Assembly (NCBI RefSeq): GCF_037975245.1
Contig: NC_092580.1
Location: forward strand, 19,144,501 to 19,208,500
Origin: Apostichopus japonicus
Lineage: Eukaryota; Echinodermata; Holothuroidea; Aspidochirotida; Stichopodidae
Length of the DNA: 64,000 bases
Direction of reading: 5' to 3'
Part shown: positions 30,674 through 60,100 of the stretch, piece after piece
Numbering within the stretch: position 1 is the stretch's first letter
Layout of the letters: each line of letters starts with the position of its first letter
Made by a program: the position numbers and the translations under genes
Notes under the pieces: model-generated
Told to the model about the DNA's origin: nothing
Seen by the model: the letters and a program-made list of their open reading frames with translations, nothing else
The model's database searches: none

Positions 30674-33600
30674 ATGTCTTCCAAACTATTTAGTAGTGTT
30701 TGTCTGCTATTTGTGTTATTGGCGTTCCAAGGAACGCTCGGTAGACCTTTGAAGGAGGAGCGAAAACTAATTCTAAAACGAGATCCGGTAAGTGTTTGCC
30801 ATTCATTCAGCTATGATATGTTTTGATTTTCTACCCCATTTTGTAAAAGGAAAAAAAAATACAATAGGTATGATGAGGCAATGATTGTTTTCAATGTCAT
30901 CATCAAAGAAACGTATATTCCACTCTTAAAACATATATAACGAAAGGAAACCAAAAGGAATAAACCACCATGATGTTAACAACTTAAAACAGTATATTCG
31001 TTCTCTTAATCTTCATACCATTTGATTAATAAATGTGTTCTGTTTAAACGTTAACATAGTTCGCATCAATGACATCATGGAATGACAGTTTTGATTCAGC
31101 CTGTTGGTGAAGAACGGTTTTACGTTCAGTACCTTTGTTTTCTTTCGTTGCTAATTTCATCGTCCTGTGTTTGGATTTCTGGTGCCCCCGCATGTTTTAT
31201 GAACACCATATGTGTCTTTTAATACGCTTTTAATGCATGGGATAAAATACCAAAAAAGGCTGGGGTCACTGGGTAAGGAGTAAATTTGACCACTTCATAT
31301 AATTGAAAACATCGTCGTTATTTAAGATAATTCAGACCACCGCCTATATGTCCCTTCCCACTGTGACACCCTTTGATAAGATGAGGTGTCTTTTCGAAGA
31401 ATTAATTGCTCCGTTGACTTAGACACTAAACTTCGCCACATTCCAACGTCGCTAGAGCATAGAGAGAAATTTCAACCCATCATAAATATAACAGCTGATG
31501 ACGTGAACTATTATGACACCCGTAAATTTACCAAACATGAGCTTTCAGATAATAAGCTAGACTGAGATGTAAGTGTAGCTTAGGACTCCCAAACCCATGC
31601 GTCAGCTCTCGTTACGAAATCTTCCGGATTTCGTCCTATCGAAAAGTACCTTATTTAGCAGTAGTTGTTTATTTCATCCTCTTCATCATGCAAAATAATG
31701 ATAATGTTAACTGAAACATGTAAAAAATTAACTTCAGTATAACACCGCTATATTTGATATTCTAACGTTTAAAGTAGTCTTTCGACATCATATTCAAGTC
31801 CAAGCATGTAGTATGTCAGCGTTTTAGTTCCACCTCAACGACTGGTGCCGTTACTCCAAGCCTTCACAAACTAGACTGATGATAATGTGACGCGCTAGTA
31901 TAACACAGGACTAGTACTAACTGATGGTACCGATGCCAATCTGCCGTCGATGCCCCTACCACCTGTCGTAGTGCCCTGAAAATTAGCCCTTAACTGCCGT
32001 GCCTCTTTCATGAAGTTTCCGTTTGCGATGTGATCATTATTTCGGTCAGGGCTCAAGATTTGTCTGAAGCTCCATCGGTATTGTCTCCGGAAAACAGCTA
32101 TTAAGCAACTGCTGGAAACGATCCAATGAACCATTCCTAATTTCTGTTATTCTGTACTTGATTTCCTCCATGTGGGGAAAAATGCCTTGGTGCCCATCAA
32201 TTCTTTGGAAAGTCCTTGGTGTCCTTTTGAAAGATGAAAAATTACAGTGGTATGTGTAATTTCAACGAAGACCCGTAACAATGTCTAACTTTCCCTAATT
32301 CTTTCACGGACTTCCAGTGTAATACATGTGAAAAACATAAACTGAAACGGCAACAAGTACGTGTCCAGTCACAAAGAATGGACTTTCTGTAGAATGTTGG
32401 GCCCTTTAACATCCGCCCATCCAAATTGTTACCTTTTCCGAATAACAAGTCCGTTGGTCAAATTTTATCTTGACCGAATACGGCACATATTCAATTGATC
32501 TTTCTGTGATTTTTGTTCCTCTCAGAGTTCCTATCCTGTTCTAACAAACAGTGATCAAGTTCCGGAAACGGTAGACAAGACCAACGAGAAAAAGGAAGCA
32601 GAAAACGACGAAGACGAAGGTACATTTGCCGAAGAACTTCGACAAACAAAGGCAGACGGAAAAGAAGTTGATGATTCATCTCATGATATCGAAGAATATG
32701 TAACGAATGTCGAGGAAGAGAAAAAAGAAAACGATGGACATGAAGACGTATTTGACGAAGAACCCCGACAAACAAAGGAAGACGGAAAACAAGCTGATAA
32801 ATCATCTTATGATATCGAAGAAGAAGTAACGAATGTCGAGGAAGAGAGAAAAGAAAACGATGAAGACGTATTTGACGAAGAGCCGCGACAAACAAAGGAA
32901 GACGGAAAACAAGCTGATGAATCATCTTATGATTTCGAAGAAGAATATGCAACGAATGTCGAGGAAGAGAGAGAAGAAAACGATGAAGACGTATTTGACG
33001 AAGAGCCGCGACAAACAAAGGAAGACGGAAAACAAGCTGATGAATCATCTTATGATTTCGAAGAAGAATATGCAACGAATGTCGAGGAAGAGAGAGAAGA
33101 AAACGATGAAGACGTATTTGACGAAGAGCCGCGACAAACAAAGGAAGACGGAAAACAAGCTGATGAATCATCTTATGATTTCGAAGAAGAATATGCAACG
33201 AATGTCGAGGAAGAGAGAGAAGAAAACGATGAAGACGTATTTGACGAAGAGCCGCGACAAACAAAGGAAGACGAAAAACAAGCTGATGAATCATCTTATG
33301 ATTTCGAAGAAGAATATGCAACGAATGTCGAGGAAGAGAGAGAAGAAAACGATGAAGACGTATTTGACGAAGAGCCGCGACAAACAAAGGAAGACGGAAA
33401 ACAAGCTGATGAATCATCTTATGATTTCGAAGAAGAATATGCAACGAATGTCGAGGAAGAGAGAGAAGAAAACGATGAAGACGTATTTGACGAAGAGCCG
33501 CGACAAACAAAGGAAGACGGAAAACAAGCTGATGAATCATCTTATGATTTCGAAGAAGAATATGCAACGAATGTCGAGGAAGAGAGAGAAGAAAACGATG

Positions 33601-34553
33601 AAGACGTATTTGACGAAGAGCCGCGACAAACAAAGGAAGACGAAAAACAAGCTGATGAATCATCTTATGATTTCGAAGAAGAATATGCTACGAATGTCGA
33701 GGAAGAGAGAGAAGAAAACGATGAAGACGTATTTGACGAAGAGCCGCGACAAACAAAGGAAGACGGAAAACAAGCTGATGAATCATCTTATGATTTCGAA
33801 GAAGAATATGCAACGAATGTCGAGGAAGAGAGAGAAGAAAACGATGAAGACGTATTTGACGAAGAGCCGCGACAAACAAAGGAAGACGGAAAACAAGCTG
33901 ATGAATCATCTTATGATTTCGAAGAAGAATATGCAACGAATGTCGAGGAAGAAAGAGAAGAAAACGATGAAGACGTATTTGACGAAGAGCCGCGACAAAC
34001 AAAGGAAGACGGAAAACAAGCTGATGAATCATCTTATGATTTCGAAGAAGAATATGCTACGAATGTCGAGGAAGAGAGAGAAGAAAACGATGAAGACGTA
34101 TTTGACGAAGAGCCGCGACAAACAAAGGAAGACGGAAAACAAGCTGATGAATCATCTTATGATTTCGAAGAAGAATATGTAACGAATGTCGAGGAAGAGA
34201 GAGAAGAAAACGATGAAGACGTATTTGACGAAGAGCCGCGACAAACAAAGGAAGACGGAAAACAAGCTGATGAATCATCTTATGATTTCGAAGAAGAATA
34301 TGCAACGAATGTCGAGGAAGAAAGAGAAGAAAACGATGAAGACGTATTTGACGAAGAGCCGCGACAAACAAAGGAAGACGGAAAACAAGCTGATGGATCA
34401 TCTTATGATTTCGAAGAAGAATATGCAACGAATGTCGAGGAAGAAAGAGAAGAAAACGATGAAGACGTATTTGACGAAGAGCAGCGACAAACGAATAAAG
34501 AAGGAGATGTATCGCCATATGATATCGAGGATGAAGCAACAAATGACGAGTAA
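30674..34553 (+). CDS. Secreted acidic protein with 16 tandem ~41-aa repeats
   Basis: Two exons in phase 0. Exon 1 (30674-30787, 38 codons) encodes a signal peptide (LLFVLLAFQGTLG) then RPLKEERKLILKRDP before GTAAGT. Exon 2 (32526-34553, stop TAA) follows the acceptor ttcctctcag. The total is 713 aa. Exon 2 is one continuous frame without a methionine. Sixteen RQT anchors mark the repeats: two divergent first units (42 and 40 aa), then a core of 41-aa (123-bp) units nearly identical in DNA, then a diverged end. The unit reads EDGKQADESSYDFEEEY, then ATNVEEEREENDEDVFDEE, then PRQTK. It is very acidic, cysteine-free in the repeats and probably disordered. No family recognised; a secreted matrix, mucus or mineral/metal-binding protein, or a peptide precursor, are possibilities only. 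Confidence 0.85.
32623..34500 (+). repeat. Coding 123-bp tandem repeat
   Basis: Anchor 'cgacaaac' recurs every 123 bp from 32886 to 34485, after two earlier copies at 32640 and 32766. Because 123 is a multiple of three, wrong frames on both strands also stay open. A gga-to-gaa variant recurs three units apart (near 33270 and 33640), suggesting block duplication. Confidence 0.95.
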
Positions 34554-38579: not shown

Positions 38580-39634
38580 TGTCACGTACATGTCAGTCTC
38601 AAACTCGCGGCAAGAACCAAACCTATAGTAAACAGTTACGTTAACCTTTGACATATGATGATATACAGAAAACTACAAAATCCACATATATGAACATAAA
38701 GAAGTTATGAACGTAAGGAAGCATCAGACACTACACATGCAGGCAATGATTTGCGTTTCAGTACTTAAGGAAGTAAATGCAATTGTTGAAATGCCTTTCA
38801 TGAAATTTACCCTAGTACAGATATATAGCCTACCTGCAAAATATCTATCTGTAGTAACAATATCTTAGTTTTTGCATTTTATTATGAACATTTATAAAAT
38901 GGTTGACTCTGGTTGGTACATAATACTGAAACAATTCATTAAAAAATATCCTTTTTTTTCATTTGAACACTTTTAGCGGGTAAAAGATTTTCAGCAAGCA
39001 AGCAGGCCTTCTAATGTTTTTCCATCCATTCTATATTTTATCATTTTTTGGAGATAAAGTCTATCTTGCTTTTTCAGACTATGACGTACAAATATATTTA
39101 AGAAGACTGAATTCATCAACAGCAAGAAAGTCAGTGCGTAACTCATTGTATAAAAAACTTTACTTTGGTTTCCGCGTACAACTGTGTTTTGTTGAATAAG
39201 AGGGAAAATGAAAGGGGGGGGGGGGGCGTGGAGGGTGGCATGAGGGTTGACTTTTATCAAATTCTTGATTCGATTTAATACGAAAATAGCAATGGAAATT
39301 ATCAGGATGAACCAAATAAAATTTTCATTTCAAATAATTACTTTGGTCAATATTTCCCATGCCCTCCTTCTTTCTTACTCATAATGTTCAGCTTTTGTCA
39401 ATAGCACTTTCATTGATCTTTCGAAAGCTTTTGACAGCAATAGCCAATTAAAAATGTTGTTTGTGTCGTGCCACAGGGGGTCAATATTTTGGTCATCTTC
39501 AATTTATTATTATTTGTGTTGTCAACCTTCGCCGTTCAAGTGATGAGATCTCACTGATTCCTTACGCCTCACGACACGAACATGTTGTGTCCTGGGACTC
39601 AGAGCCTTTGTGGCAACAAAAAATTAAACATGTC

Positions 39635-40083
<449 letters not shown>

Positions 40084-40292
40084 AATATTAGTCTTTTTGC
40101 ATGTAACCAAATCTTGGAGTGATGACGTATTTAGGCAGTGGTTTAAGACTACAAATACACGATATCGAAGTAAGGGTATGCAAGAGACATAACGAAAGTC
40201 ATTAAAAGAAATATTTCAATCTTACTTAAATGACTCCTTTTTATTATTCTGGCCTTAGTTTACTTGGATCTTGGATTGGTAAAGACATCACA

Positions 40293-43200
40293 ATGTATGC
40301 TTCACCGGTGATAATTTGTGTACTGTTTACGGTTACCGTGGTATTTTCGATTCCGGTAACTGAAAGGACCAACGAGGATGACAACATGATCAGGAGGGTA
40401 AGTTGTAATATTTGACAGTTTTCAACGTATAGCTGACTCTATGTTTGTCTTATGGCTGACTTTATGTCTGTCGTATACCTGACTCTATGTTTGTCTTATA
40501 GCTGACGCTATGTTGGCCTTTTAGTTGAATCTATGTTTGTCTTATAGCTGACGCTATGTTTGTCTTATAGCTGACTCTATGTTTGTCTTATAGCTGACGC
40601 TATGTTTGTCTTATAGCTGACTCTATGTTTGTCTTATAGCTGACTCTATGTTTGTCTTATAGCTGACTCTATGTTTGTCTTATAGCTGACGCTATGTTTG
40701 CCTTTTAGCTGACTCTATGTTTGTCTTATAGCTGACGCTATGTTTGTCTTATAGCTGACTCTATGTTTGTCTTATAGCTGACGCTATGCTTGTCTTATAG
40801 CTGACTCTATGTTTGTCTTATAGCTGACGCTATGTTGGCCTTTTAGATGACTCTATGTTTGTCTTATAGCTGACTCTATGTTTGTCTTATAGCTGACGCT
40901 ATGTTTGTCTTATAGCTGACTCTTTGTTTGTCTTATAGCTGACGCTATGTTGGCCTTTTAGCTGACTCTATGTTTGTCTTATAGCTGACGCTATGTTTGT
41001 CTTATAGCTGACTCTATGTTTGTCTTATAGCTGACGCTATGCTTGTCTTATAGCTGACTCTATGTTTGACTTAAAGCTGACTCTATGTTTGTATAAGGCA
41101 CTGAAAAGAGGCAAAATTTTCTAATCATTCTGGGCGATACCGCGGTAACGATATGTATGTATGTATGTATTTTAGATCCTCCTGCAAGCGGGAACTCGCG
41201 AAGAAGCCTCATTGGCTTATCAAAGCTGCAAGCTGACCGAAGTCAGTCTCTTACATTCATATTTAACGTCCATGATCATGAATTGTCAATTGTCAACAAC
41301 TCTGTAGGCCTAACTGGACGATATACATTAATCTTGGAGTGACTCGAACCGGGGACCTTATGATTGGAAGGCACCGGCGTTAACCACTGAGCTGACACTC
41401 CACTTTTGAAATATTGAAATATATTGAAATTTATTTGAAATTGAAGATTTTGAAATTTACAAGCTAAATATGACTCATTGAGATTTTTAAGGCCGGTAGG
41501 AGCAAAATAAAAAGCATTGCTTGGGGCACAGGGCTTTGCCTAGATTGAGGAATATGAAGGGTAAAGACGACCATAAGTGCAAGATAAGAAAAATGATATT
41601 ATTATTAATAATAATATTTCCACAAAAAAAGAGATTTTTTTATGAAATTATAAGTATTGAGAAACTTGAACAGCTAAAAAAAAAAAAAAAAAAAAAAATC
41701 CAAAGATTACGATTGCCTAAATAAAGCTATGGAAGAGCATTTGTTTCTGGTATGAATATTGTGACAGAATAAGCTATTTAAATTTATTTTGTTTTAAGTA
41801 TGTCTGTTTATTGATTGATTGACTTTTTGATTGATTGATTTTTTGAAACAAAATTTGACTTATAAAGTACAACTTTGAATTCCCTTATTATTTGATATCT
41901 TAGTAAATTCACAGACAAAGTAGCCCCAAAGTTCGAATATTTAAGTAAAGAAAAAAACTTGTAGTCCTTGTATCATATATAGACATCTTAAAACTCGAAT
42001 TATCTTTGTCAGAATGAAAAGAAAGTAATATACGCCATCCTGGCACAAGTGACCAAGTATAATTAAGAGGAACATTGGTTGCATGGTAAAGTGTTCGATT
42101 AAAACCTGATGTGGATATGTAAGCAAAATCACGTGAGTGGAGTAGGGTTTATGTCTCTTAACGAGATGGATACACTCTCCCCCGCTCCTCACACTTTTTT
42201 GCATTTCCAGGTGGCCTCAGATGCAATTTGGTGCTCCAAATGAGATTTTTTTTTCTCATTTAGAAATGAAAAAAGGGTTTTCTGACTTGCAAAGCGGGGG
42301 GCGGAATGATACTTCCGCCCCCATATTTTTCACTAGGGGGCTGGCGCCCTCAGCCCCCCGGTTCATACGCCCTTGTGCATGGTGGTTGGGGGTGGTTGAG
42401 AAGGCTTAAATAGAAAAATCAGTATCAGATCAAAGGAGTGGTGTGATGTTGGAATGCTGAGAACATTATGATATAGTTTATGTGCCTGGTGATGAAAAAC
42501 AGAAAGTATAAAACCGAAGATTAAACGGCACGAACACACTTTCGGTGGAAAACCATCAGTACCGGTAATTGTCAGTAAATCGTTTGCAATTAAATTCATC
42601 GAAAATGCTAAAGGTTTGTTATTGTCACCGTAAGTACAGTCTTTGAAGCTCAGATATATATCCGAAGGAGCTATATACTGAAAGATGTATAGATTAGTGG
42701 TGTTAACATATTTACAATAAACTATTTGCCAATTTTTTCGAATACTTAATTTGTATCATTTCAGGAGGATTCCGTTAGTGATTATTCTAGTTTTTCCTTT
42801 GACTACAGCTTCCTTGTTAAAAGTGAAACTTTCGAAAACATGAGGGGAAAGATTTTGTTCGTTCAGGAGAGGGGTCTCAGAGAATTTTTCTTTGGTTGAA
42901 AAATTGAGCGTACTCAGATGCAACTTTTAAAACAATGTTGAAGAATTTGGTTGAGTTTGTCATGTCATCATGGCAGACAATTCCAAAAACTTATTCTTTT
43001 TTACAATAAACTATGTGCCAATTTATCTTGATAAATTTCCGAATGTTTTATTTGTATCATTTCAGGAGGATCCCGTTATTGATTTTGACGGTTATAGCTG
43101 CGTCTGCGGCTTCACTCGTGAACCAAAACCACCACGGGTCAGTAGAACCGTTTGCAATTAAATTTGCATTGAAATATTATCTCTTCAAGACATTCTAACT

Positions 43201-46200
43201 ACAGGGAACATTGACATCACAGCAAACATGCCAAATTTTTCACATTTCATGGACAATGAACAATAAAATTTTAGTCGGGGAAAGCGAAGCTTTCGAAAAC
43301 ATGGGGGGAAGATGTTATGTCGTTCAGGGAAGGGGTCTCTTAACATTTTGTTTGTAAACTTGAGCGTGCTCAGATGCAACTTTTAAAACAATGTTGAAGA
43401 ATTTGGTTGAGGTTGTCATGTCATCATGGCAGACAATTCCAAAAACTTATTCTTTTTTACAATAAACTATGTGCCAATTTATCTTGATAAAATTCCGAAT
43501 ATTTTATTTGTATCATTTCAGGAGGATTCCGTTGATTATTCAAGTTATAACTGCGTCTGCGGCTACACTGAAGAACCAAAACAACGGGTCAGTAGAACCG
43601 TTTGCAATTAAATTTGCATTGAAATATTATCTCTTTTTTTGGCATCTTCAAGACATTCTAACTACAGAGAATATTGACATCAAAGCAAGCATGCCAAATT
43701 TATCACATTTCATGGACAATGAACAATAAAATTTTAGTCGGGGAAAGTGAAGCTTTCGAAAACATGGGGGAAAGATGTTATGTCATTCAGAGAAGGGGGT
43801 CTCTTAACATTTTGTTTGTAAACTTGAGCGTGCTCAGATGCAACTTTTGAAAACAATGTTAAAGAATTTGGTTGAGGTTGTCATGTTATCATGGTAGATA
43901 AATTCCAACAGCTTATTTTTTTTTACAATAAACTATGTGCCAAGTTATCTTAATTTATTTTCGAATATTTTATCTGTATCATTTCAGGAGGCTCCCGTTA
44001 GTGATTATGCTAGTAATTTCTTCGACTACAGCTTCCTTCGTAAACCAAAACCAATGGTCAGTACAACCGTTTGCAATTAAAGTTGCATTGAAATATTATC
44101 TCTTTTTTTTGGCATCTTCAAGACATTCTAACTACAGAGAACATTGACATCAAAGCAAGCATGCCATATTATCACATGTCAAGGACAGTGAACAATCAAA
44201 TTCTAAACGAAAAGTGAAGCTTTCGAAAACATGAGGGGGGGGATGTTATGTCGTTCAGGGAAGGGGTCTCAGAGAATGTTTTTGTCAAATTGAGCGTACT
44301 CAGATGCACCTTTAAAACAATGTTGAAGAATTTGGTTGAGGTTGTCATGTTATCATGGTAGATAAACTCAAAAAGCTTTTCTCTGTTTTTTACAATAAAC
44401 TATGTGCCAATTTATCTTGATTTATTTTCGAATATTTTATCTGTATCATTTCAGGAGGATTCCGTTAGTGATTATGCTAGTAATTTCTTCGACTACAGCT
44501 TCCTTCGTAAACCAAAACCAATGGTCAGTACAACCGTTTGCAATTAAATTTGCATTGAAATATTATCTTCTTTTTTTTTTGGCATCTCCAAGACATTCTA
44601 ACTACATAGAAATTGACATCAAAGCAAGCATGCCAAATTTATCACATGTCAAGGACAGTGAACAATCAAATTCTACACGAAACGTGAAGCTTTCGAAAAC
44701 ATGAGGGGATGATGTTATGTCGTTCAGGGAAGGGGTCTCAGAGAATGTTTTTGTCAAATTGAGCGTACTCAGATGCACCTTTAAAACAATGTTGAAGAAT
44801 TTGGTTGAGGTTGTCATGTTATCATGGTAGATAAACTCAAAAAGCTTTTCTCTATTTTTTACAATAAACTATGTGCCAATTTATCTTGATTTATTTTCGA
44901 ATATTTTATCTGTATCATTTCAGGAGGATTCCGTTAGTGATTATGCTAGTAATTTCTTCGACTACAGCTTCCTTCTTAAACCAAAACCAATGGTCAGTAC
45001 AACCGTTTGCAATTAAATTTGCATTGAAATATTACCCTTTTTTGTTGTTGGCATCTTCAAGACATTCTAACTACAGAGAACATTGACATCAAAGCAAACA
45101 TGCCAAATTTATCACATTTCATGGACAATGAACAATGAACAATAAAATTCTAAACGAAAAGTGAAGCTTTCGAAAACATGAGGGGATGATGTTATGTCGT
45201 TCAGGGAAGGGGTCTCAGAGAATGTTTTTGTAAACTTGAGCGTACTCAGATGCACCTTTAAAACAATGTTGAAGAATTTGGTTGAGGTTGTCATGTCATT
45301 ATGGCAGATAAATTGAGCTTATTCTCTTTTACAATAAAATATGTGCCAAGTTATCTTAATTTATTTTCGAATATTTTATCTGTATCATTTCAGGAGGATT
45401 CCGTTAGTGATTATGCTAGTAATTTCTTCGACTACAGCTTCCTTCGTAAACCAAAACCAATGGTCAGTACAACCGTTTGCAATTAAAGTTGCATTGAAAT
45501 ATTATCTCTTTTTTTGGCATCTTCAAGACATTCTAACTACAGAGAATATTGACATCAAAGCAAGCATGCCAAATTTATCACATTTCATGGACAATGAACA
45601 ATAAAATTCTAAACGAAAAGTGAAGCTTTCGAAACGTGAGGGGGGAGATGTTATGTCGTTCAGGGAAGGGGTCTCAGAGATTTTTTTATGTAAACTTGAG
45701 CTTGCTCAGATGCACCTTTAAAACAATGTTGAAGAATTTGGTTGAGGTTGTCATGTCATTATGGCAGATAAATTGAGCTTATTCTCTTTTACAATAAACT
45801 ATGTGCCAAGTTATCTTAATTTATTTTCGAATATTTTATCTGTATCATTTCAGGAGGATTCCGTTAGTGATAACGGTAGTAATTACTTCGACTACAGCTT
45901 CCTTCGTAAACCAAAACCAATGGTCAGTAGAACCGTTTGCAATTAAAGTTGCATTGAAATATTATCTCTTTTTTGGCATCTTCAAGACATTCTAACTACA
46001 GAGAATATTGACATCAAAGCAAGCATGCCAAATTTATCACATTTCATGGACAATGAACAATAAAATTCTAAACGAAAAGTGAAGCTTTCGAAACGTGAGG
46101 GGGGAGATGTTATGTCGTTCAGGGAAGGGGTCTCAGAGATTTTTTTATGTAAACTTGAGCTTGCTCAGATGCACCTTTAAAACAATGTTGAAGAATTTGG

Positions 46201-47677
46201 TTGAGGTTGTCATGTCATTATGGCAGATAAATTGAGCTTATTCTCTTTTACAATAAACTATGTGCCAAGTTATCTTAATTTATTTTCGAATATTTTATCT
46301 GTATCATTTCAGGAGGATTCCGTTAGTGATAACGGTAGTAATTACTTCGACTACAGCTTCCTTCGTAAACCAAAACCAATGGTCAGTAGAACCGTTTGCA
46401 ATTAAAGTTGCATTGAAATATTATCTCTTTTTTGGCATCTTCAAGACATTCTAACTACAGAGAATATTGACATCAAAGCAAGCATGCCAAATTTATCACA
46501 TTTCATGGACAATGAACAATAAAATTCTAAACGAAAAGTGAAGCTTTCGAAACGTTAGGGGGGAGATGTTATGTCGTTCAGGGAAGGGGTCTCAGAGATT
46601 TTTTTATGTAAACTTGAGCTTGCTCAGATGCACCTTTAAAACAATGTTGAAGAATTTGGTTGAGGTTGTCATGTCATTATGGCAGATAAATTGAGCTTAT
46701 TCTTTTTTACAATAAACTATGTGCCAAGTTATCTTAATTTATTTTCGAATATTTTATTTGTATCATTTCAGGAGGATTCCGTTAGTGTTTACGCTAGTAA
46801 TTTCTTCGACTACAGCTTCCTTCGTAAACCAAAACCAAAGGTCAGTACAACCGTTTGCAATTAAATTTGCATTGAAATATTATCTTTTGAACTTGTGAAA
46901 CAATATTCTAGAATGTGGTTGACGTTGTGATGTCATCATGGCAGATCAACTCCAAACGCTTTTGTGTTTTAATAATCTTTTCTCTAATTTTGATAAGTAA
47001 TGGTTTACATATAATGAAAAAAAAATACTATGTTTTTAACTCAAGTCACCTCCGGGATGGGGACGGGAGGTGGAGAGGAGAGGGAATTGGAGGGGAAGGG
47101 AGGTGGAGAGGAGTGGGACGGGGAGATGGCAGACAAAATTTAGTTTTTCTCTCGGTAAGGGGGTTAAATGCTATCATTTCCATTATTGCAACTACATTTA
47201 CAAGGGTTCACGACTTTGCGTGTGTTTACAATTGATATCGTCCCTGCAAACTCTGCGTGGGGGTGGGGGCTGGGATTTTGGAGGGGGTACTTTTCACCTG
47301 CACCTGCACATGTGAACAGAATGAATGGCATCTTTATTGAGAAAAGTTTACATCGACGAACATCTGTACGGCAATTAGTAGCTGTAATAAAATATTATTG
47401 ACCACTATAGTGAAAGATCACTGTAATGTTTACTAGATTCATGTTATCTTGTTTACTTCATCTCATATTTTTATACTAATTTTATTGAAGTAAATATATT
47501 GCAAACAAATAAAGTTTAGGAAATCGTTTATTTTGATTTTCTCAATTTAAATCCAATGAAGTTTCTACATCTACCTTTTTGATACTTTCTCGTTTAATAT
47601 TTTTGTTTCTTCTTCCTCTTCTTCAGATTGGTACAAATATTGGAATTTGGAAGAAACTGTCAAAACAAAAAAATTGA
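40293..47677 (+). CDS. Secreted multi-repeat precursor built from tandemly duplicated mini-exons
   Basis: Exon 1 (40293-40397) encodes a signal peptide (VIICVLFTVTVVFS), then IPVTERTNEDDNMIRR and donor GTAAGT. The upstream in-frame ATG at 40230 would put a long leader before the hydrophobic core. Nine phase-0 mini-exons follow, each after 'tatcatttcag' and before GTCAGT: 43066-43137, 43522-43587, 43988-44056, 44455-44523, 44924-44992, 45394-45462, 45854-45922, 46313-46381, 46772-46840. A strong acceptor (ttcttcctcttcttcag) introduces the last exon, 47627-47677 (NIGIWKKLSKQKN, stop). Total about 258 aa. Seven repeats read EDSVSDYASN then FFDYSFLRKPKPM with small changes; the first two differ and carry CVCG. 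RR, R or RK at or near the junctions could be processing sites. No family recognised. A peptide precursor or secreted structural protein is an inference. Splicing is inferred from sequence only. Confidence 0.72.
40428..41092. repeat. 23-bp minisatellite in intron 1 of the mini-exon gene
   Basis: About 29 copies of 'gctgactctatgtttgtctt' plus 'ata', many alternating act and acg in the fifth to seventh bases, giving a partial 46-bp higher-order period. A few 'ggcctttta' variants. Confidence 0.95.
41151..41402 (-). mobile_element. tRNA-derived SINE with (TACA)n tail
   Basis: Read on the minus strand from 41402: a tRNA-like head with an A box (CAGCTCAGTGG) and B box (GGTTCGAGTCA), anticodon-loop region CTTCCAA as in a Gly-type tRNA. 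A body follows with 'gaggcttcttcgcgagttcc' and 'cgcttgcaggaggatc', then a short repeat tail seen as (atgt)n on the plus strand. It lies in intron 1 of the mini-exon gene, antisense to it. Confidence 0.75.
42201..42375. mobile_element. 5'-truncated copy of the G-rich hAT-like MITE
   Basis: Matches the right half of 25759-26129, from 'gcatttccaggtggcctcag' to 'cgcccttg'. Confidence 0.8.
42700..46890 (+). repeat. Tandem array of ~460-bp units, each with one exon
   Basis: Exon starts are spaced 301, 456, 466, 467, 469, 470, 460, 459 and 459 bp. Each unit has an AATAAA about 60 bp before the acceptor, the exon, then an intron with 'gaagctttcgaaaacatgag' and 'gaatttggttgaggttgtca'. The units starting at 45854 and 46313 are almost identical over 459 bp, the most recent duplication or gene conversion. 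Confidence 0.95.
42765..42899 (+). other. First, deletion-bearing mini-exon unit (possible alternative last exon)
   Basis: It has the normal acceptor and begins EDSVSDYSSF, but a deletion joins the exon directly to downstream intron sequence and removes the GTCAGT donor. The open frame continues for 44 codons to a TGA at 42897. Skipping gives the main model; use would give a short secreted product, with an AATAAA near 43004 in the next unit. Confidence 0.55.
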
Positions 47678-48973
47678 CAATATTAGGAACTCTGACATCC
47701 TAATGTCGAACCATCGACGGATTTTTTTGGGGGGTGTTGTTGTAATCTTTCATTTTATTGAAGTCCTCAAGGACCATTTATATAGCTTGGTGAAGGGAAC
47801 AGGCGATGACGTGAAGTGAGCGGGAGGGGGGGGGGAAGTAAGTGGGAGGGAGGGCGGGAGGATTCGGGAATGGGGGAGGGAGGTATATGAGATGAGCTGA
47901 GTTGGTTGGGCTTAGTAAGATGGGGTGCACTGGATTTAGTAAGATATGGTAGGTTAATTTTTGCAGGAGCTAGGGCAGAAGAAATTGCTTTTGATGACTA
48001 ATACTGATGACTGTATAAGACATGCAGTTTACATGCACTCACGTTTGATCTGTATTCTGAATCACCAAACCTCTGTGATGTTTATAACCTTGCCTTCTAG
48101 AAAGTGCCATTGTATGTACCAGGCTCCAGCTAACATATAACAACTGGATAGCTAAGAACAGCTAGAACTAAATCCGAACCTCTTCATTTACTGAAGCCTT
48201 GACACAAATAATCCGAGCTGCTCTCGAATGTGATAAGAGGTCTGTGAACCATTATAAGAACTGGGCAAATATAGGAGGATCAATGATTTCATAAAGGAGG
48301 GGTGTGGCCATGGGGTGTTTGAAGACATAATATATTCAGACATATATGATAAATTAGGACTAAGCGCAAGGTTGTACCAATCAGTACACTTTAATATTTG
48401 AGGTAAGTTGAAGCGGGGAGGTTGGGGGCGGGGGGGGGGGGTGGAATGGACTGACGAAGCCAAAGCGGGAATTCCACTTCCCCTTTGAGCACGCAACTGC
48501 ATCCAATCCCACGTTTAAAAACACAGGGAGCACCAGCCGTGTCTTAAATATATTCAACATTCACATTTAGTTTATAAGCTTGGAGTTCAACAGCCCGTAA
48601 CCACAAATTGCCTTCTTTAATTTTATCCAAACCTTTCCGGCACTAAAACCCAGAAAGTTGCGTGGGGCACTTCTGATGGTTTGGGCACTGACAGTGATCA
48701 GCAAACATCTGTCTTTCTGTCTATTGATCGATATGTCGCTCCATCAATCTAGCAATTGTAATGCCTTCTTATGATAGGTTTTATAATTCGAATCTTTAAC
48801 ATGTCCCTTTTAGTTTTAACGTTAACTGTCTTCAACACTTATCATAATATATGCTAAATACCGTGTTCTGCAATCTAAAAAGTACCGGTACATAGTCAAC
48901 ACTGCATGAGCATGCGTCAATATCTTTTAGTTTCATAAAAATCAAGCAAAGTTACGACATTTGACATGACATG
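47678..48973. other. Non-coding stretch after the mini-exon gene
   Basis: Purine-rich 'gggaggggg' tracts at 47820-47890 and a G-run near 48430. No gene supported. Confidence 0.5.
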
Positions 48974-49264
48974 CAGTGGCGTAGGAAGGTACTTTTGAGT
49001 GGGGGGGGGGGCTGAAGACTGATGGCCGGCCTGGGGGAGGGGTCTAAGGGGAGGGGGTGTCATTTGCATTTCCAGGTAGCCTCAGATGCAATTTGGTGCA
49101 ATATAGCACACTTCAACACCCACTCCATTTTGTAAACTTAATTTTGTATTTTCACCAGGCCTTAGATGCAATTTGGTGTTCCAAATGAGATTTTTTTCTC
49201 ATTTGGAAATGAAAAAGGGGTTTTCTGACTTGGCGCCCCCAGCCCCCCGGTTCCTACGCCCTTG
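48974..49264. mobile_element. Copy of the G-rich hAT-like MITE with internal deletion
   Basis: Begins 'cagtggcgtaggaaggtac' and ends 'cctacgcccttg', as at 25759-26129. The flanking 8 bases do not match well, so the target duplication has decayed. Confidence 0.8.
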
Positions 49265-50965
49265 ATGAATGAATGGGATCATGCGGAAGTAGAGGGGAGT
49301 ACAAACGTGTACAAAATGTGTATTCTGAAGCATATTTGGACTATTAATTGCGTCCATTGCAAGGTCTTAACGCAAAGTTGTGCTAAGAAATACTCTGGTA
49401 TTTTCGGGTGAGGTTGAAAAGTAGTGTACACCCCCGAACGAGTGGTCTAACTCTTCAACCGACTGAAGTAAACATCCCCGACTGCACCAATTTCCCCCGA
49501 GTGAACGACGGATGTGTTAGCCATGCCCCCTCTAACCCGATCAGTGTATTTATGTACGTTTGTCGTAGGGTCCACATGGCAGGCCATAACGACAATCTAT
49601 ATACTACAGTACGTGCGTTGAGGCGTTGTTCCAGGGAGCAGCATCTTAGATGTCAAATACATACACGTATACCCTCTTTATTGTTAAAAGGGTGCATATT
49701 TTAACAAGTTTGAAGAAACTACAAAAATCATAGCAAAAGTTCCACTACTTTTAACGCCGTCGCTTCTTTATTAAAGAGACGAGACACGGAAGGAAATGGT
49801 GCACCTCTACGGCATTACCCCTCCTCCACCCCCCTCCCCCAACACTCCCGGTCTCCCACACTTGTTCTTATTAAATGTATTGCTTATTTACCATTGTATA
49901 CCAGGCGTACGACACATTATTGTAATACATCTACATGAAAGCTCCTCTTTCCCCCCATCCTCTGTTTTTATTGTTGTTGACGCCACTGTTCATACATAAG
50001 TAAACATGGTATCTTTTGTTGGTCAGTCTTCAGTTTCATGACCCAGTTAAAGAAATCATCCCGTCTTGACGTCGTTACCTGATAATGAGTGGCACTTCAA
50101 CAAATACAATAGACGATAACGGGACCTATTCTTTCTCATTTCTTTTCATATATTTAAGGAGTCATCGATTTCTTTTCGCATCCATTTTCTCTTTCTATAA
50201 AGACCCCCAAGAGACTCCCTGTGAATTTAAAATACCATGAGTTATCAAAAAAGGCCTTCAATTGATCGATACTATCATCCCCCTAAGAACCAAAATAATG
50301 ATCGGATATCAATGCTTCTTCTTTGGAATAACTTCATGGGCCACCTTTGTGTCTGGTGTACCTTTAATGGGATGGAGAGGCTGGTTGTTTGAGGGGGGCG
50401 CCTATATATATATATATATATATATGGTATTGATTCGCCCACATCTGTCGCTAGGCAAAACACGGTTCATATGTCGCTGAGAAAGACATGCCCAGATATA
50501 TGACCAGTATATGATTCTGTTGCTTAAGTTTTGACGAACCGCAAGAAAAGGCTAACTAGAAATACAAACCACGTGATTGAATATTTTGTTCTTGTTTTGT
50601 AGTCCATACTGTGCCAGTGTTTTAAAAACCAATGACGCAAATATTTGGTGGATCTTAGACACAATCCGTTAGACTGAAGTTTTTTTTTTTCTTCCGCGGA
50701 TACGTTGGAGCATGTTTACTTTTGCCTCTCGAGTTTGCCATGGAATTTGGTCGGTAAAATTAAACCAATAGTATAAAGTTTTACAACATGTTAGTATGAC
50801 CCAAATTATAAAGTAGATGATGGAGTGAATGAACCGTGAGTTAAATATTATGTGATTTTTAAAGAATCAACTAACTAGAAATTTTAAAAATCTAGACTTT
50901 ATGATTCGTCGGGATAACTTGGAAATGTTTAAAGACTTTACTTGTGAGGATCAATTAATTCGAAA
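49265..50965. other. Non-coding stretch
   Basis: Contains a short (TA)n at 50403-50425. No exon supported. Confidence 0.5.
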
Positions 50966-52084
50966 ATGGACGGTGCAAGAGCGGGAACGTCATTGACCAG
51001 ATCGGAAGACGACGAAAAACCCCGTAAACGAAAACATCGCGATGCTGGAGCGGTGCTTGCGCGAAAACGGTTCGAGAATATCGTAAAGCGTTCTGCTTAT
51101 TTAAGGAAATGGACTGGGATTATCAACAATGCGGAGAAGAATAAATTAATCAATTGTGAGAAACAAATGCTAAAAACTCAGAAAATTAACGAACTGAAGA
51201 TATCGCGGTATAAAGAACAGCTGAAACAGGAACTCTACGAAATGGCGGCCGCGAAGAAAGCACTAAAACTTCATTCGGTGCTGGAAGAGGACGATCGCGC
51301 GGAGCAACGACGAAAAGTAGAGCGATACGCAGCACGGGGACGATATCAGTACGCCATAAGAAACGAGACCAAAGTCCAAAAGGAAACGATGGAATCTTTT
51401 AACGAACGCAAAGATACGGCAAAGAAGCTTCTAGCGCCGGCTAGACGGCAAAGTATGGTCGCACTCACAAATGGCGAGTTGATGGGTTCCGCCGACCCAG
51501 AGAATTATTTGAAAGTTGGTCGGAAATTGAGCAAAATCGACATTAGGGACGATTTATATTATTCCAGCTCCGATGAGGAAGATACCGAACTCGTCGGGGA
51601 AGTTAAGATGAGTAGTTTGCTGACTCAACAAAATTTTGACACGGAGGGAAGACGGCGGCGACAAAAATCGTCGAAATCCGTCGGAACATCACCGGGAATA
51701 AATTTGACGAAATTACGTCACGAACTCGGTCCCGAATTACGTAAACAACTCGACGCTATTTTCATCGACGATCCGGATTACCAGATGTCACCGCTTATGC
51801 GAGTCGGTACCGCCTCGGCAGATTCAACCGGTCAGATACCGACCTCTGACGATACCGCGACATCGTCCACGATAAGGATAGATGCAGACGAAGGTGAGAT
51901 GGAGGACGAGACTGACTTGAATGTGATACAGGAAGATAAAGAAAAGACACCGAGATTAAAGCTTCCTCCTCTCAAAGCAGATAGAAATATTCTGTCATCT
52001 ATAGTGTCTAGACCAAATGTTGCCAAGCCAATGTTGAGTACGGTTGCGGAAAGCGAGACTATTCAAAGTAGTACTTACAACTGA
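50966..52084 (+). CDS. Intronless basic coiled-coil protein of unknown function
   Basis: A single open frame of 372 aa from an ATG in a good context (ttcgaaaATGG). The N-terminus holds a nuclear-localisation-like stretch (KPRKRKHRD). Residues ~30-160 are rich in Lys, Arg, Glu and Leu with heptad-like spacing (KTQKINELKISRYKEQLKQE, later EDDRAEQRRKVERYAARGRY), so probably helical coiled coil. Near 197-206 is an acidic serine cluster (YYSSSDEEDTE) of casein-kinase-2 type. The C-terminal third is Ser/Thr/Asp-rich and low in order. No signal peptide or membrane segment. CpG-rich codon use differs from the AT-rich flanks, which supports real coding. I do not recognise the family. It could be a single-exon gene or an old retrogene; no poly(A) scar or target duplication was noticed. 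Confidence 0.8.
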   Translation: MDGARAGTSLTRSEDDEKPRKRKHRDAGAVLARKRFENIVKRSAYLRKWTGIINNAEKNKLINCEKQMLKTQKINELKISRYKEQLKQELYEMAAAKKALKLHSVLEEDDRAEQRRKVERYAARGRYQYAIRNETKVQKETMESFNERKDTAKKLLAPARRQSMVALTNGELMGSADPENYLKVGRKLSKIDIRDDLYYSSSDEEDTELVGEVKMSSLLTQQNFDTEGRRRRQKSSKSVGTSPGINLTKLRHELGPELRKQLDAIFIDDPDYQMSPLMRVGTASADSTGQIPTSDDTATSSTIRIDADEGEMEDETDLNVIQEDKEKTPRLKLPPLKADRNILSSIVSRPNVAKPMLSTVAESETIQSSTYN

Positions 52085-57100: not shown

Positions 57101-60100
57101 GTCTGGAGGAGAGGGGACAGGGATGGTAGGGAGGATAGAGGGTGGGAAGGCCACTGCAATGTAAAATAATAATGCTCAAATGTCAAAATGCAACCAAATT
57201 TTTGATTTTGATACACACTTTTCCAGTGTGATGTATTCACCTCTCAAATATAGGTTATGTCTTGAGGCCAAAATGACGATGATATCAGCTCCTGTTGAAA
57301 TGTTAATGTCAAATCACGGTTTCATAAACTCTAAACAACCCCATTTAATATTCTTCCTTTTAGCTTCAGGCAAACAACAGGGCAATGGTGGGTGATATTT
57401 GAAATCAGTTGCCCTTGAAAAATCCATTACAGACATGGTACTCCGGTCCAGTGTTCTGTTATAGTGTAATCCGATACAGACATGGTACTCCGGTCCATGG
57501 TGTTCTGTAATTGTGTAATTGATTACAGACATGGTACTCCGGTCCATAGTGTTCTGTAATTGTGTTATTGATATACAGACATGGTACTCCGGTCCATGGT
57601 GTTCTGTAATTGTGTAATCCATTACAGACATGGTACTCCGGTCCATGGTGTTCTGTAATTGTGTTATCGTTTACAGACATAGTACTCTGGTCCATGGTGT
57701 TCTGTAATTGTGTAATCGTTTACAGACATATTACTCTGGTCCATGGTGTTCTGTAATTGTGTAATCGATATACAGACATGGTACTCCGGTCCATGGTGTT
57801 CTGTAATTGTGTAATCGATATACAGACATGATAGTCCGGTCCATGGTGTTCTGTAATTGTGTAATCCAATACAGACATGGTACTCCGGTCCATGGTGTTC
57901 TGTAATTGTGTAATCGATAACAGACATGGTACTCTGGTCCAGTGTTCTGTTATAGTGTAATCCATTACAGACATGGTACTCCAGTCCATGATGTTCTGTA
58001 ATTGTGTAATCAATAACAGACATGGTACTTCAGTCCATAGTGTTCTGTAATTGTGTAATCGATAACAGACATGGTACTCTGGTCCAGTGTTCTGTTATAG
58101 TGTAATCCATTACAGACATGGTACTCCGGTCCATGGTGTTCTGTAATTGTGTAATTGATAACAGACATGGTACTCTGGTCCAGTGTTCTGTTATAGTGTA
58201 ATCCATTACAGACATGGTACTCCAGTCCATGATGTTCTGTAATTGTGTAATCAATAACAGACATGGTACTTCAGTCCATAGTGTTCTGTAATTGTGTAAT
58301 CGATAACAGACATGGTATTCTGGTCCAGTGTTCTGTTATAGTGTAATCCATTACAGACATGGTACTCCAGTCCATGGTGTTCTGTAATTGTGTAATCGAT
58401 AACAGACATGGTACTCGGGTCCGTGGTGTTCTGTAATCCATGTACTTAAATCGTCCGTCCATATTGATCGACCAGCATCTCAAAATTTCTCAAAGAATCA
58501 TAATGGTATAGCAAAAAAAAATCAGTATCAATGCGAAAAAAAACAATTTGGCAGTAACAAGACTGATTGTGTGCATACAGTCATCCTTCACGTAAAAGCG
58601 ATTTGGAACTTTGGGGAGAATGACCGACTAAAGGATTTAACAAGACTGCCACCACACACAGGTACACTTGTGATGACATGAACAGTTTGCGTAGTATAAT
58701 TAAAGACCTACCCGGCTGATTCGGATCCTTTGTTTAGATTTGGATTTCCCTTCCCATGATGCAATACTTTATTCAAATCATCCGACAATCCCTGTCTATC
58801 TTCCTCGTCCATCAGCTCAGGATCAACATCATCAAACCAGATCTCCGGTTTGCTATTAAGATAGAACATTAAAATTAAATGAATAGAACTATAGTGTAGG
58901 TTGTGCTCTGAACTCATGAAGATTGGTCTGGATATAATGTACACAGTCTGTTCTATGTATATCAACTCAACAAAACTAAGTGTCAGTCATCTATGGTTTT
59001 AAACTGTTGACAGAGAACTGCAGGGTACAGTAACTACAGTACTGAATTGGTTTCAAAGTTTATTTTCTCCAAGAAGGTACTGTAAATGTACTTACTGGTC
59101 CATGGCTTTGGCTAATTTTTTCTTCTTTTCAGGTGGTTGATAATTGATGCTCTAAGGGATGTCAAAACAAGAGATCAGAGAGAGTTTACAAACTATTTTA
59201 ACAATGTTTTTTGTGAAAAACGAATTTCAATTATGGAGTTGAAAGTCTTTGATACCTCAAACAAAAAACATTAATAACATTAGTGCAAATATCTAACAAT
59301 GGGTGGAGTTTTATCAAAAGCAACTCACTTTAATAAAAGGAAAAACACAACCAAAATGCACTAACAGTTTTGCTACCCTTAAAAACAAGTCACAGACCGT
59401 ATTTTTTTCCTCAAATCTTACCCTTCTCCTCCCCCCCCCTACCTCTTCTTTTGCCAACCCTACCCTAACAAAAAACAGGGAAGAAAATAAAAAGGCAGGA
59501 AAGACTACTAAAAAGGTTGTTAAAAAATCGGCAGAGACTGACAAACACATATATCTCAATTGAAACATTGGTATCTGCAAGAATAAGTTTACCGCAGCTA
59601 AGAAAGCTCAAGTTTATCAAACTTTATTTCATCCAAGAATCACCTAATACTGGGAGTTCAATAAAATGTTGAACATATGACCGTAACAAATTATATTGAA
59701 CATTCATCTAATAAAAACAGCACAATGAATTAATTTGAGATTATATGAAGTTTATACAAGTTTAACTTGATTTTGAAACAAATACACACATTAAAAATGG
59801 AAGAGTACTAACATCTTATTTGACAAAAATAATCCAACTAACCATTGCAAATAATTTTCCAAAAAAGCCCTGTACCTTGTCAAGATTGCAAATTGCTAAA
59901 GCTCTGATCAGACAGTTAAATCGGTTCCAATGATCTTCTGCAATTAGTGTATCATATTCACACTCAAATACAGTACTTCCATACAGAAAGATCAAAATGC
60001 AAGTTTGAAACTTGCAGTATGCATGCAAATGTAAAAGAAAAGGACTGCACTGATTTTTGGATGAAGATTTTCTCAATGAAATTTGACGATTTTACCTTCA

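What the first reader, a model, noticed from the sequence alone, without database searches (positions are those of the whole stretch)
40293..47677. A secreted precursor made by duplicating one mini-exon nine times
Seen: a signal-peptide exon, nine in-frame phase-0 exons of 66-72 bp each inside a ~460-bp tandem unit with conserved 'tttcag' acceptors and GTCAGT donors, then a strong acceptor and a 16-codon stop exon. The exons are more constrained than their introns except in the youngest units. Because every unit is phase 0 at both ends, copy number can change without breaking frame, so unequal crossing-over directly edits protein length. I know no family with this motif set (EDSVSDYASN, FDYSFLRKPKP). 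Inference: a lineage-specific secreted peptide precursor or structural protein.
Basis: partly seen in the sequence, partly recalled or inferred. Interest (0 to 1): 0.88.

Follow-up and report, generated by a model that had tools for sequence, protein, structure and literature searches.

The report
Sea cucumber mini-exon repeat gene

Summary
The exon array is really there and very probably codes. Nine phase-0 exons (72, 66 and 7 x 69 bp) with TTTCAG acceptors and GTCAGT donors lie in a 459-bp unit behind a signal-peptide exon. A tenth unit (42765) has lost its donor. The genome is Apostichopus japonicus, a sea cucumber. No second locus was found in the genome and no family in Pfam or the PDB. 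Synonymous sites alone support selection only weakly (omega 3.2, p = 0.055). The last exon is uncertain: no AATAAA between it and 51140. A second secreted repeat gene lies next upstream. Best reading: an orphan secreted repeat protein whose gene works like a schistosome micro-exon gene. A neuropeptide precursor is less likely, since the main units lack good cleavage sites. No transcripts could be examined, so splicing is inferred.

The parts
40293..40397 (+). Signal-peptide exon, MYASPVIICVLFTVTVVFSIPVTERTNEDDNMIRR, ends in phase 0 at gtaagt; ends with a dibasic RR
   Evidence: U1 pairing -10.0 kcal/mol; one of two hits of the signal-exon scan
40428..41092 (+). 23-bp minisatellite, 28.9 copies, inside intron 1
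42571..42604 (+). Remnant of a donor flank (unit 0) without a recognised exon
   Evidence: 32 of 37 columns identical to the unit 2 donor flank
42765..42899 (+). Unit 1: acceptor intact, exon 3' end and donor lost in a ~170-bp deletion; reads EDSVSDYSSFSFDYSFLVKSETFENMRGKILFVQERGLREFFFG*; skipped or alternative last exon (AATAAA at 43005)
43066..43137 (+). Mini-exon u2, CVCG type, EDPVIDFDGYSCVCGFTREPKPPR (72 bp)
43522..43587 (+). Mini-exon u3, CVCG type, EDSVDYSSYNCVCGYTEEPKQR (66 bp)
43988..44056 (+). Mini-exon u4, EAPVSDYASNFFDYSFLRKPKPM
44455..44523 (+). Mini-exon u5, EDSVSDYASNFFDYSFLRKPKPM
44924..44992 (+). Mini-exon u6, EDSVSDYASNFFDYSFLLKPKPM
45394..45462 (+). Mini-exon u7, same peptide as u5
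45517..45633 (+). Intron stretch of the unit (unit bases 124-240) that matches 31 further places in the genome: probably transposon-derived; not found in the last intron
45854..45922 (+). Mini-exon u8, EDSVSDNGSNYFDYSFLRKPKPM
46313..46381 (+). Mini-exon u9, same peptide as u8
46772..46840 (+). Mini-exon u10, EDSVSVYASNFFDYSFLRKPKPK
47627..47677 (+). Candidate last exon, IGTNIGIWKKLSKQKN*; strong acceptor but no AATAAA near
30674..30787 (+). Upstream neighbour gene: signal exon, MSSKLFSSVCLLFVLLAFQGTLGRPLKEERKLILKRDP, phase 0
32526..34553 (+). Upstream neighbour gene: exon with about 15 copies of a 41-aa acidic repeat (123 bp)

Best explanation
This is a gene of the sea cucumber Apostichopus japonicus, found at one locus only, for a secreted, probably disordered protein of about 258 residues (if all nine complete units and the 47627 exon are used). 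Each repeat of 22-24 residues is one symmetric (phase 0) mini-exon carried in a 459-bp exon-plus-intron unit. Shown by sequence: the unit copies, open frames, splice signals, mosaic similarity between units, and an excess of exon over intron change between the two exon classes. Inferred: unequal crossing-over and gene conversion change unit number and spread variants; selection keeps new amino-acid variants; any mini-exon can be skipped without a frame shift, and any retained unit intron ends the protein after seven more residues (VS[RT]TVCN*). So the locus could make many length and sequence variants, in the way described for schistosome micro-exon genes. The product most likely works outside the cell as a repeat-built polyampholyte (EDSVSD acid end, aromatic core, RKPKP basic end; two leading units with a CxC pair), in a secretion or extracellular layer exposed to other organisms. 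One propeptide cut (MIRR|ED) is likely.
For: Array, frames and splice signals. Exon indels are in frame (2 of 2 gap runs are 3 bp), while 14 of 16 intron gap runs are not multiples of three. Divergence peaks in the exon: u2, u3 against u4-u9, 11 of 66 fixed differences against 9 of 375 in the intron, Fisher p = 2e-5; 1 of 20,000 site shuffles as extreme; no equal window wholly in the intron has more than 6. With u10 added (left out because its intron is incomplete) the exon count is 10 of 66. All lie in codons whose amino acids differ between the classes; one, the first base of codon 24, may have been a silent step (codon tables). Codon model omega 3.2. Signal exon is one of two hits in a scan of about 84 kb. 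One locus. No Pfam match over its cut-off, no PDB match better than E 0.61. Mosaic units: u5/u7 exon identical with intron 38/389 different, u7/u8 the reverse. Schistosome MEGs: small symmetric exons, signal peptide, raised dN/dS, transposon enrichment (passages).
Against: No RNA or protein data. Inside the exons alone the test is weak: 31 nonsynonymous to 4 synonymous changes by parsimony, p = 0.17 at the simple site ratio (0.09 or 0.04 if 22% or 25% of changes are expected silent); omega free against omega 1: lnL -244.47 against -246.31 (MG, seven distinct exons), p = 0.055. The exon-intron contrast could be distorted by gene conversion. GTCAGT donors are moderate (-6.4 to -8.9 against -10.0 for exon 1). 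Last exon uncertain. Mini-exons (66-72 bp) are longer than the 6-36 bp given for most MEG exons. Disorder and exposure to other organisms are inferred from composition only.
Confidence: 0.6

Rival explanations
1. Neuropeptide or peptide-hormone precursor: the units are cut apart to give many copies of related peptides.
For: Signal peptide, dibasic RR right before the first unit, repeats of peptide size; u2 and u3 each end in a single Arg and carry a CxC pair. A. japonicus uses monobasic sites in several precursors, and stichopin is a 17-residue peptide with a disulphide bridge (PMC6586643, passages).
Against: None of nine units ends in KR or RR; the six R-K sites are followed by proline; u6 has LK instead. 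No Gly amidation signal at any unit end. The string FDYS does not occur in the main text of the A. japonicus neuropeptide paper; its figures and supplements were not seen.
Confidence: 0.15
2. Structural or adhesive secretion protein (mucus, cuticle, tube-foot glue, egg coat), partner of the strongly acidic repeat protein next door; the repeats give length and stickiness, and opposite charges let the two condense.
For: Neighbour mature product has net charge about -230 over 690 residues; this protein has alternating acidic and RKPKP blocks. Tandem-repeat adhesive proteins without orthologues are reported in Holothuria leucospilota (PMC12472103, passage).
Against: The Holothuria proteins belong to Cuvierian tubules, which A. 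japonicus lacks (recalled). The array protein itself is acidic overall (-7.3), so charge pairing is not evident. No expression data.
Confidence: 0.2
3. Not a functional gene: a decayed or chance open array whose exon-like stretch is simply part of a satellite-like repeat.
For: Unit 1 and the remnant unit 0 are decayed; the unit contains a dispersed, probably transposon-derived stretch; no transcript was examined.
Against: Nine of nine complete exons open and in frame; indels in frame; the divergence peak lies in the exon and changes amino acids; signal exon in phase.
Confidence: 0.08
4. The gene ends elsewhere than proposed (compatible with any of the functional readings): u10 read through its donor to VSTTVCN* with AATAAA at 47386 or 47508, or unit 1 used as an alternative last exon giving a 79-residue short protein.
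For: AATAAA at 47386, 47508 and 43005, none between 47677 and 51140; unit 1 has an acceptor and, down to 43040, only one weak donor-like GT, out of phase.
Against: u10 has the best donor among the FDYSF-type units (-7.9) and the 47627 acceptor tract is fully pyrimidine. ATTAAA occurs at 49770.
Confidence: 0.4

Closest known systems
Schistosome micro-exon genes (MEGs), including the tandemly repeated 81-base exons of Davis et al. 1988 (title seen in a reference list; the paper is not held)
   Same: Signal peptide; short symmetric exons making about 80% of the coding part (here 621 of 777 bp, summed); long introns; raised dN/dS; transposon pieces (passages).
   Different: Other phylum; free-living animal; one gene found, not a family; exons 66-72 bp and all copies of one another; alternative splicing not shown.
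Titin PEVK region
   Same: Short repeat exons duplicated in tandem, differential splicing, some codons under positive selection, LINE elements linked to exon duplication (PMC6469411, passages).
   Different: Intracellular muscle spring (recalled), not secreted; no titin match in the Pfam and PDB searches of the predicted protein.
Cuvierian organ outer-layer tandem-repeat proteins of Holothuria leucospilota
   Same: Sea cucumber, adhesive secretion, no orthologues, long tandem repeats (PMC12472103, passage).
Neuropeptide precursors of A. japonicus
   Same: Small secreted precursors, some with several peptides (PMC6586643, passages).
   Different: Canonical cleavage sites between repeats are missing here.

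Membership tests
Schistosome micro-exon genes | Signal peptide on the product | tested here: met
   Hydrophobic core in the first exon; no dedicated signal-peptide predictor was available
Schistosome micro-exon genes | Most of coding region in short symmetric exons | tested here: met
   Nine phase-0 exons, 621 of 777 bp; but 66-72 bp, above the 6-36 bp range quoted and inside the maximum of 81 bp quoted
Schistosome micro-exon genes | Accelerated amino-acid change in the mature part | tested here: inconclusive
   Strong against the intron, weak by synonymous sites alone (omega 3.2, p = 0.055; parsimony p = 0.17); between repeats of one gene, not between species
Schistosome micro-exon genes | Variants by alternative splicing | not testable with these tools
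   No RNA data
Schistosome micro-exon genes | Sequence homology to MEG proteins | not tested
   No animal protein collection at hand; Pfam and PDB gave no relative
Neuropeptide precursors | Dibasic or monobasic cleavage sites flanking each peptide | tested here: not met
   No KR/RR between units; RK-P in six of nine; single Arg at the end of two
Neuropeptide precursors | Signal peptide | tested here: met
Cuvierian tubule repeat proteins | Sequence similarity or expression in Cuvierian tubules | not testable with these tools
   Sequences not held; A. japonicus has no Cuvierian tubules (recalled)

The most novel reading that the evidence does not exclude
An independent, deuterostome invention of a micro-exon variation system: a cassette array in which one symmetric exon is copied, mutated under diversifying selection and mixed by gene conversion and optional splicing, with built-in stop units (unit 1 and every retained unit intron), to make a changing set of secreted proteins for contact with microbes, parasites or gametes. 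The neighbouring 41-residue repeat gene would be a sister that kept its repeat inside one exon (alignment score reached by 19 of 3,000 shuffles; single-unit tests were not significant).
Probability: 0.22. Interest if true: 0.82.

Novelty: new variant of a known kind. Interest (0 to 1): 0.52.

Why it matters
If transcribed as proposed, it is a clear case in an echinoderm of a protein whose length and sequence are edited by copying one exon with its intron, with the introns inside the array serving as a yardstick for selection on the exons. It would show that the micro-exon design, best known from parasitic flukes, also arises in a free-living deuterostome. The species is farmed and has a reference genome with RNA data, so the claim can be tested at once.

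Tried and rejected
Paralogues elsewhere in the genome: none found by DNA (42 matches, 11 in the array and 31 elsewhere that touch only the intron stretch) or by protein (best off-locus hit had E 0.28). These searches score only the best candidates, so distant relatives could be missed. The query held 6 of the 9 units, that part of the 15 repeats. Pfam DUF4806 (E 0.0007) rejected: below its cut-off and no single stretch passes. PDB: a phospholipase homologue at E 0.61, taken as chance. Extra in-frame exons: none in 40400-42764 and two low-complexity candidates in the last intron, at the thresholds. Common origin of the two repeat genes: suggestive only (19 of 3,000 shuffles for the joined protein, 608 of 3,000 for the propeptide stretch; 144, 118 and 1,325 of 2,000 for single units, 46 of 2,000 for the signal exons). 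Cuvierian-tubule reading rejected for the species (recalled anatomy). Literature searches: listings only, and several list a small part (15 of 279, 12 of 74, 12 of 2,948, 12 of 634). No echinoderm micro-exon gene appeared in what was listed; sequences cannot be searched there, so the gene may well be in print or annotated as hypothetical. Also looked at and not used: PMC8786786 (passages; fungal repeat proteins without exon-per-repeat structure in what I saw) and PMC13228809 (abstract and outline). Structure prediction was not run: the spliced protein is not letter for letter in the window and has no relatives to align.
Full report
WHAT IS THERE. The window is a piece of contig 20 of a 671.58-Mb genome in 35 contigs. 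Signal exon 40293-40397 encodes MYASPVIICVLFTVTVVFSIPVTERTNEDDNMIRR and ends in phase 0 at gtaagt. Ten TTTCAG|GAGG acceptors follow; nine open an exon of 72, 66 or 69 bp closed by GTCAGT. Tandem Repeats Finder sees one array, 42819-46885, unit 459 bp, 8.8 copies, 92% matches. Two exon types exist: CVCG type (u2, u3) and FDYSF type (u4-u10). Unit 1 (42765) is FDYSF-like but lost its last codons, donor and first intron bases in a deletion of about 170 bp; it reads on to a stop at 42899 with AATAAA at 43005. A donor-flank remnant at 42571-42604 suggests a still older unit, and the last intron holds two pieces of the unit without its transposon-like stretch.

WHICH ANIMAL. A vasopressin/oxytocin-type exon elsewhere in the genome reads CFITNCPLGGKR, the A. 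japonicus holotocin (PMC6586643, passages). The 37-residue AjOX1 peptide given in the same paper (passage) matches at 100% over 37 of 37. The A. japonicus assembly is reported as 671.60 Mb, 23 chromosomes of 18.21 to 46.02 Mb (PMC10344927, passages); contig lengths seen here include 18.20 and 46.04 Mb. The scaffold number (34 there, 35 here) and the base total differ slightly.

IS IT MORE THAN CHANCE. Copies of one unit share signals by descent, so nine matching splice sites are not nine proofs. Three other things count. First, exon indels: both gap runs are 3 bp, while 14 of 16 intron gap runs are not multiples of three. Second, an ATG-hydrophobic-core-strong-donor scan over the window and about 20 kb beside it, both strands, gave only two hits, both phase 0: this exon and the one of the upstream repeat gene; its thresholds were set after both exons had been seen. 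Third, divergence between the two exon classes (u2, u3 against u4-u9; u10 left out because its intron is incomplete) peaks in the exon: 11 of 66 exon sites fixed against 9 of 375 intron sites (Fisher p = 2e-5). One of 20,000 site shuffles was as extreme, and no intron window of equal size has more than 6. With u10 the exon count is 10 of 66. All lie in codons whose amino acids differ between classes; one of them, the first base of codon 24, may have been a silent step. A non-coding satellite has no evident reason to do this.

Exons are not in general more constrained than introns. CVCG against FDYSF pairs: exon 0.26-0.32, intron 0.08-0.12. u7 against u8: 4 of 69 against 1 of 390. The opposite is seen for u5 against u7: 0 of 69 against 38 of 389. 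u7 thus looks like a mosaic, u8-like in its intron and u5-like in its exon, best explained by conversion or unequal exchange. This same mixing weakens simple rate tests. Inside the exon the synonymous yardstick is short: 31 nonsynonymous to 4 synonymous changes, p = 0.17 at the simple site ratio. The codon model gives omega 3.2 and improves by 1.84 log units over omega 1 (MG, seven distinct exons), p = 0.055. So diversifying selection is strongly suggested by the introns and only weakly by synonymous sites.

THE ENDS. Donor strengths in U1 pairing: exon 1 -10.0, u2 and u3 -8.9, u4-u9 -6.4 to -6.6, u10 -7.9 kcal/mol; 5% of all GT in the window reach -6. Each of the nine complete units, if its intron is kept, ends after VS[RT]TVCN*. 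The 47627 acceptor tract is all pyrimidine, but AATAAA is missing from 47677 to 51140 and present at 47386 and 47508. The last exon must be settled by RNA.

WHAT IT MAY DO. The predicted protein (258 residues, all nine complete units, 47627 exon) is hydrophilic, rich in Ser, Asp, Pro, Phe, Lys and Tyr. It has no Pfam match over its cut-off and no PDB relative. FDYSF units run from acidic (EDSVSD) through aromatic (FFDYSF) to basic (RKPKP). Cleavage sites of a peptide precursor are lacking in them. I therefore favour a secreted repeat protein acting outside the cell, with a gene built and evolving like schistosome micro-exon genes (PMC4350168, PMC5825161, PMC10526429: passages) or titin PEVK (PMC6469411: passages). 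The likeness is of design, not shown descent.

SURROUNDINGS. The next gene upstream on the same strand (30674-34553) has the same layout, a phase-0 signal exon and then repeats, but there about 15 repeats of 41 acidic residues lie in one exon. A local alignment of the two proteins through [FY]xxEP[RK]Q..ED..SSY is reached by 19 of 3,000 shuffles; single-unit tests are not significant. Common origin is a lead only. Further upstream are duplicated HYR-domain genes (two stretches of the first copy tested, both HYR; the second copy by its near-identical reading frames). Downstream is a REXO4-like gene on the other strand, recognised by eye in the ORF list; Pfam gave no match for the two stretches tested.

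VERDICT. Real, very probably coding, without a known relative in what could be searched, of a known design in an unexpected animal. Function in detail is unknown; expression data would decide quickly.

Noticed in passing
30674-34553: Second secreted repeat gene: phase-0 signal exon plus one exon with about 15 copies of a 41-residue, very acidic repeat (123 bp, 97% matches), net charge about -230; only this locus matched in the genome.
   Followed up: partly
1-25120: HYR-domain gene with a membrane-spanning end (by eye), duplicated in tandem at an offset of about 17.8 kb, each copy with a tRNA gene (7397 and 25048).
   Followed up: no
39630-40095: A TA-rich core flanked by inverted copies of the same sequence (fold-back element, seen by eye) about 200 bp before the signal exon.
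   Followed up: no
45517-45633 and its copies in other units: Intron stretch related to 31 further places in the genome; the last intron lacks it, so the main amplification may have followed its insertion, or the last intron lost it.
   Followed up: partly
43066-46883, the 43 bases after each donor: Between the two exon classes these bases differ by 1-2 of 43, against 0.08-0.12 for the whole intron; could be a splicing element.
   Followed up: no
57421-58437: 49-bp minisatellite, about 21 copies.
   Followed up: no
50963-52081: Uninterrupted basic open frame of 373 residues without a Pfam match over its cut-off.
   Followed up: no
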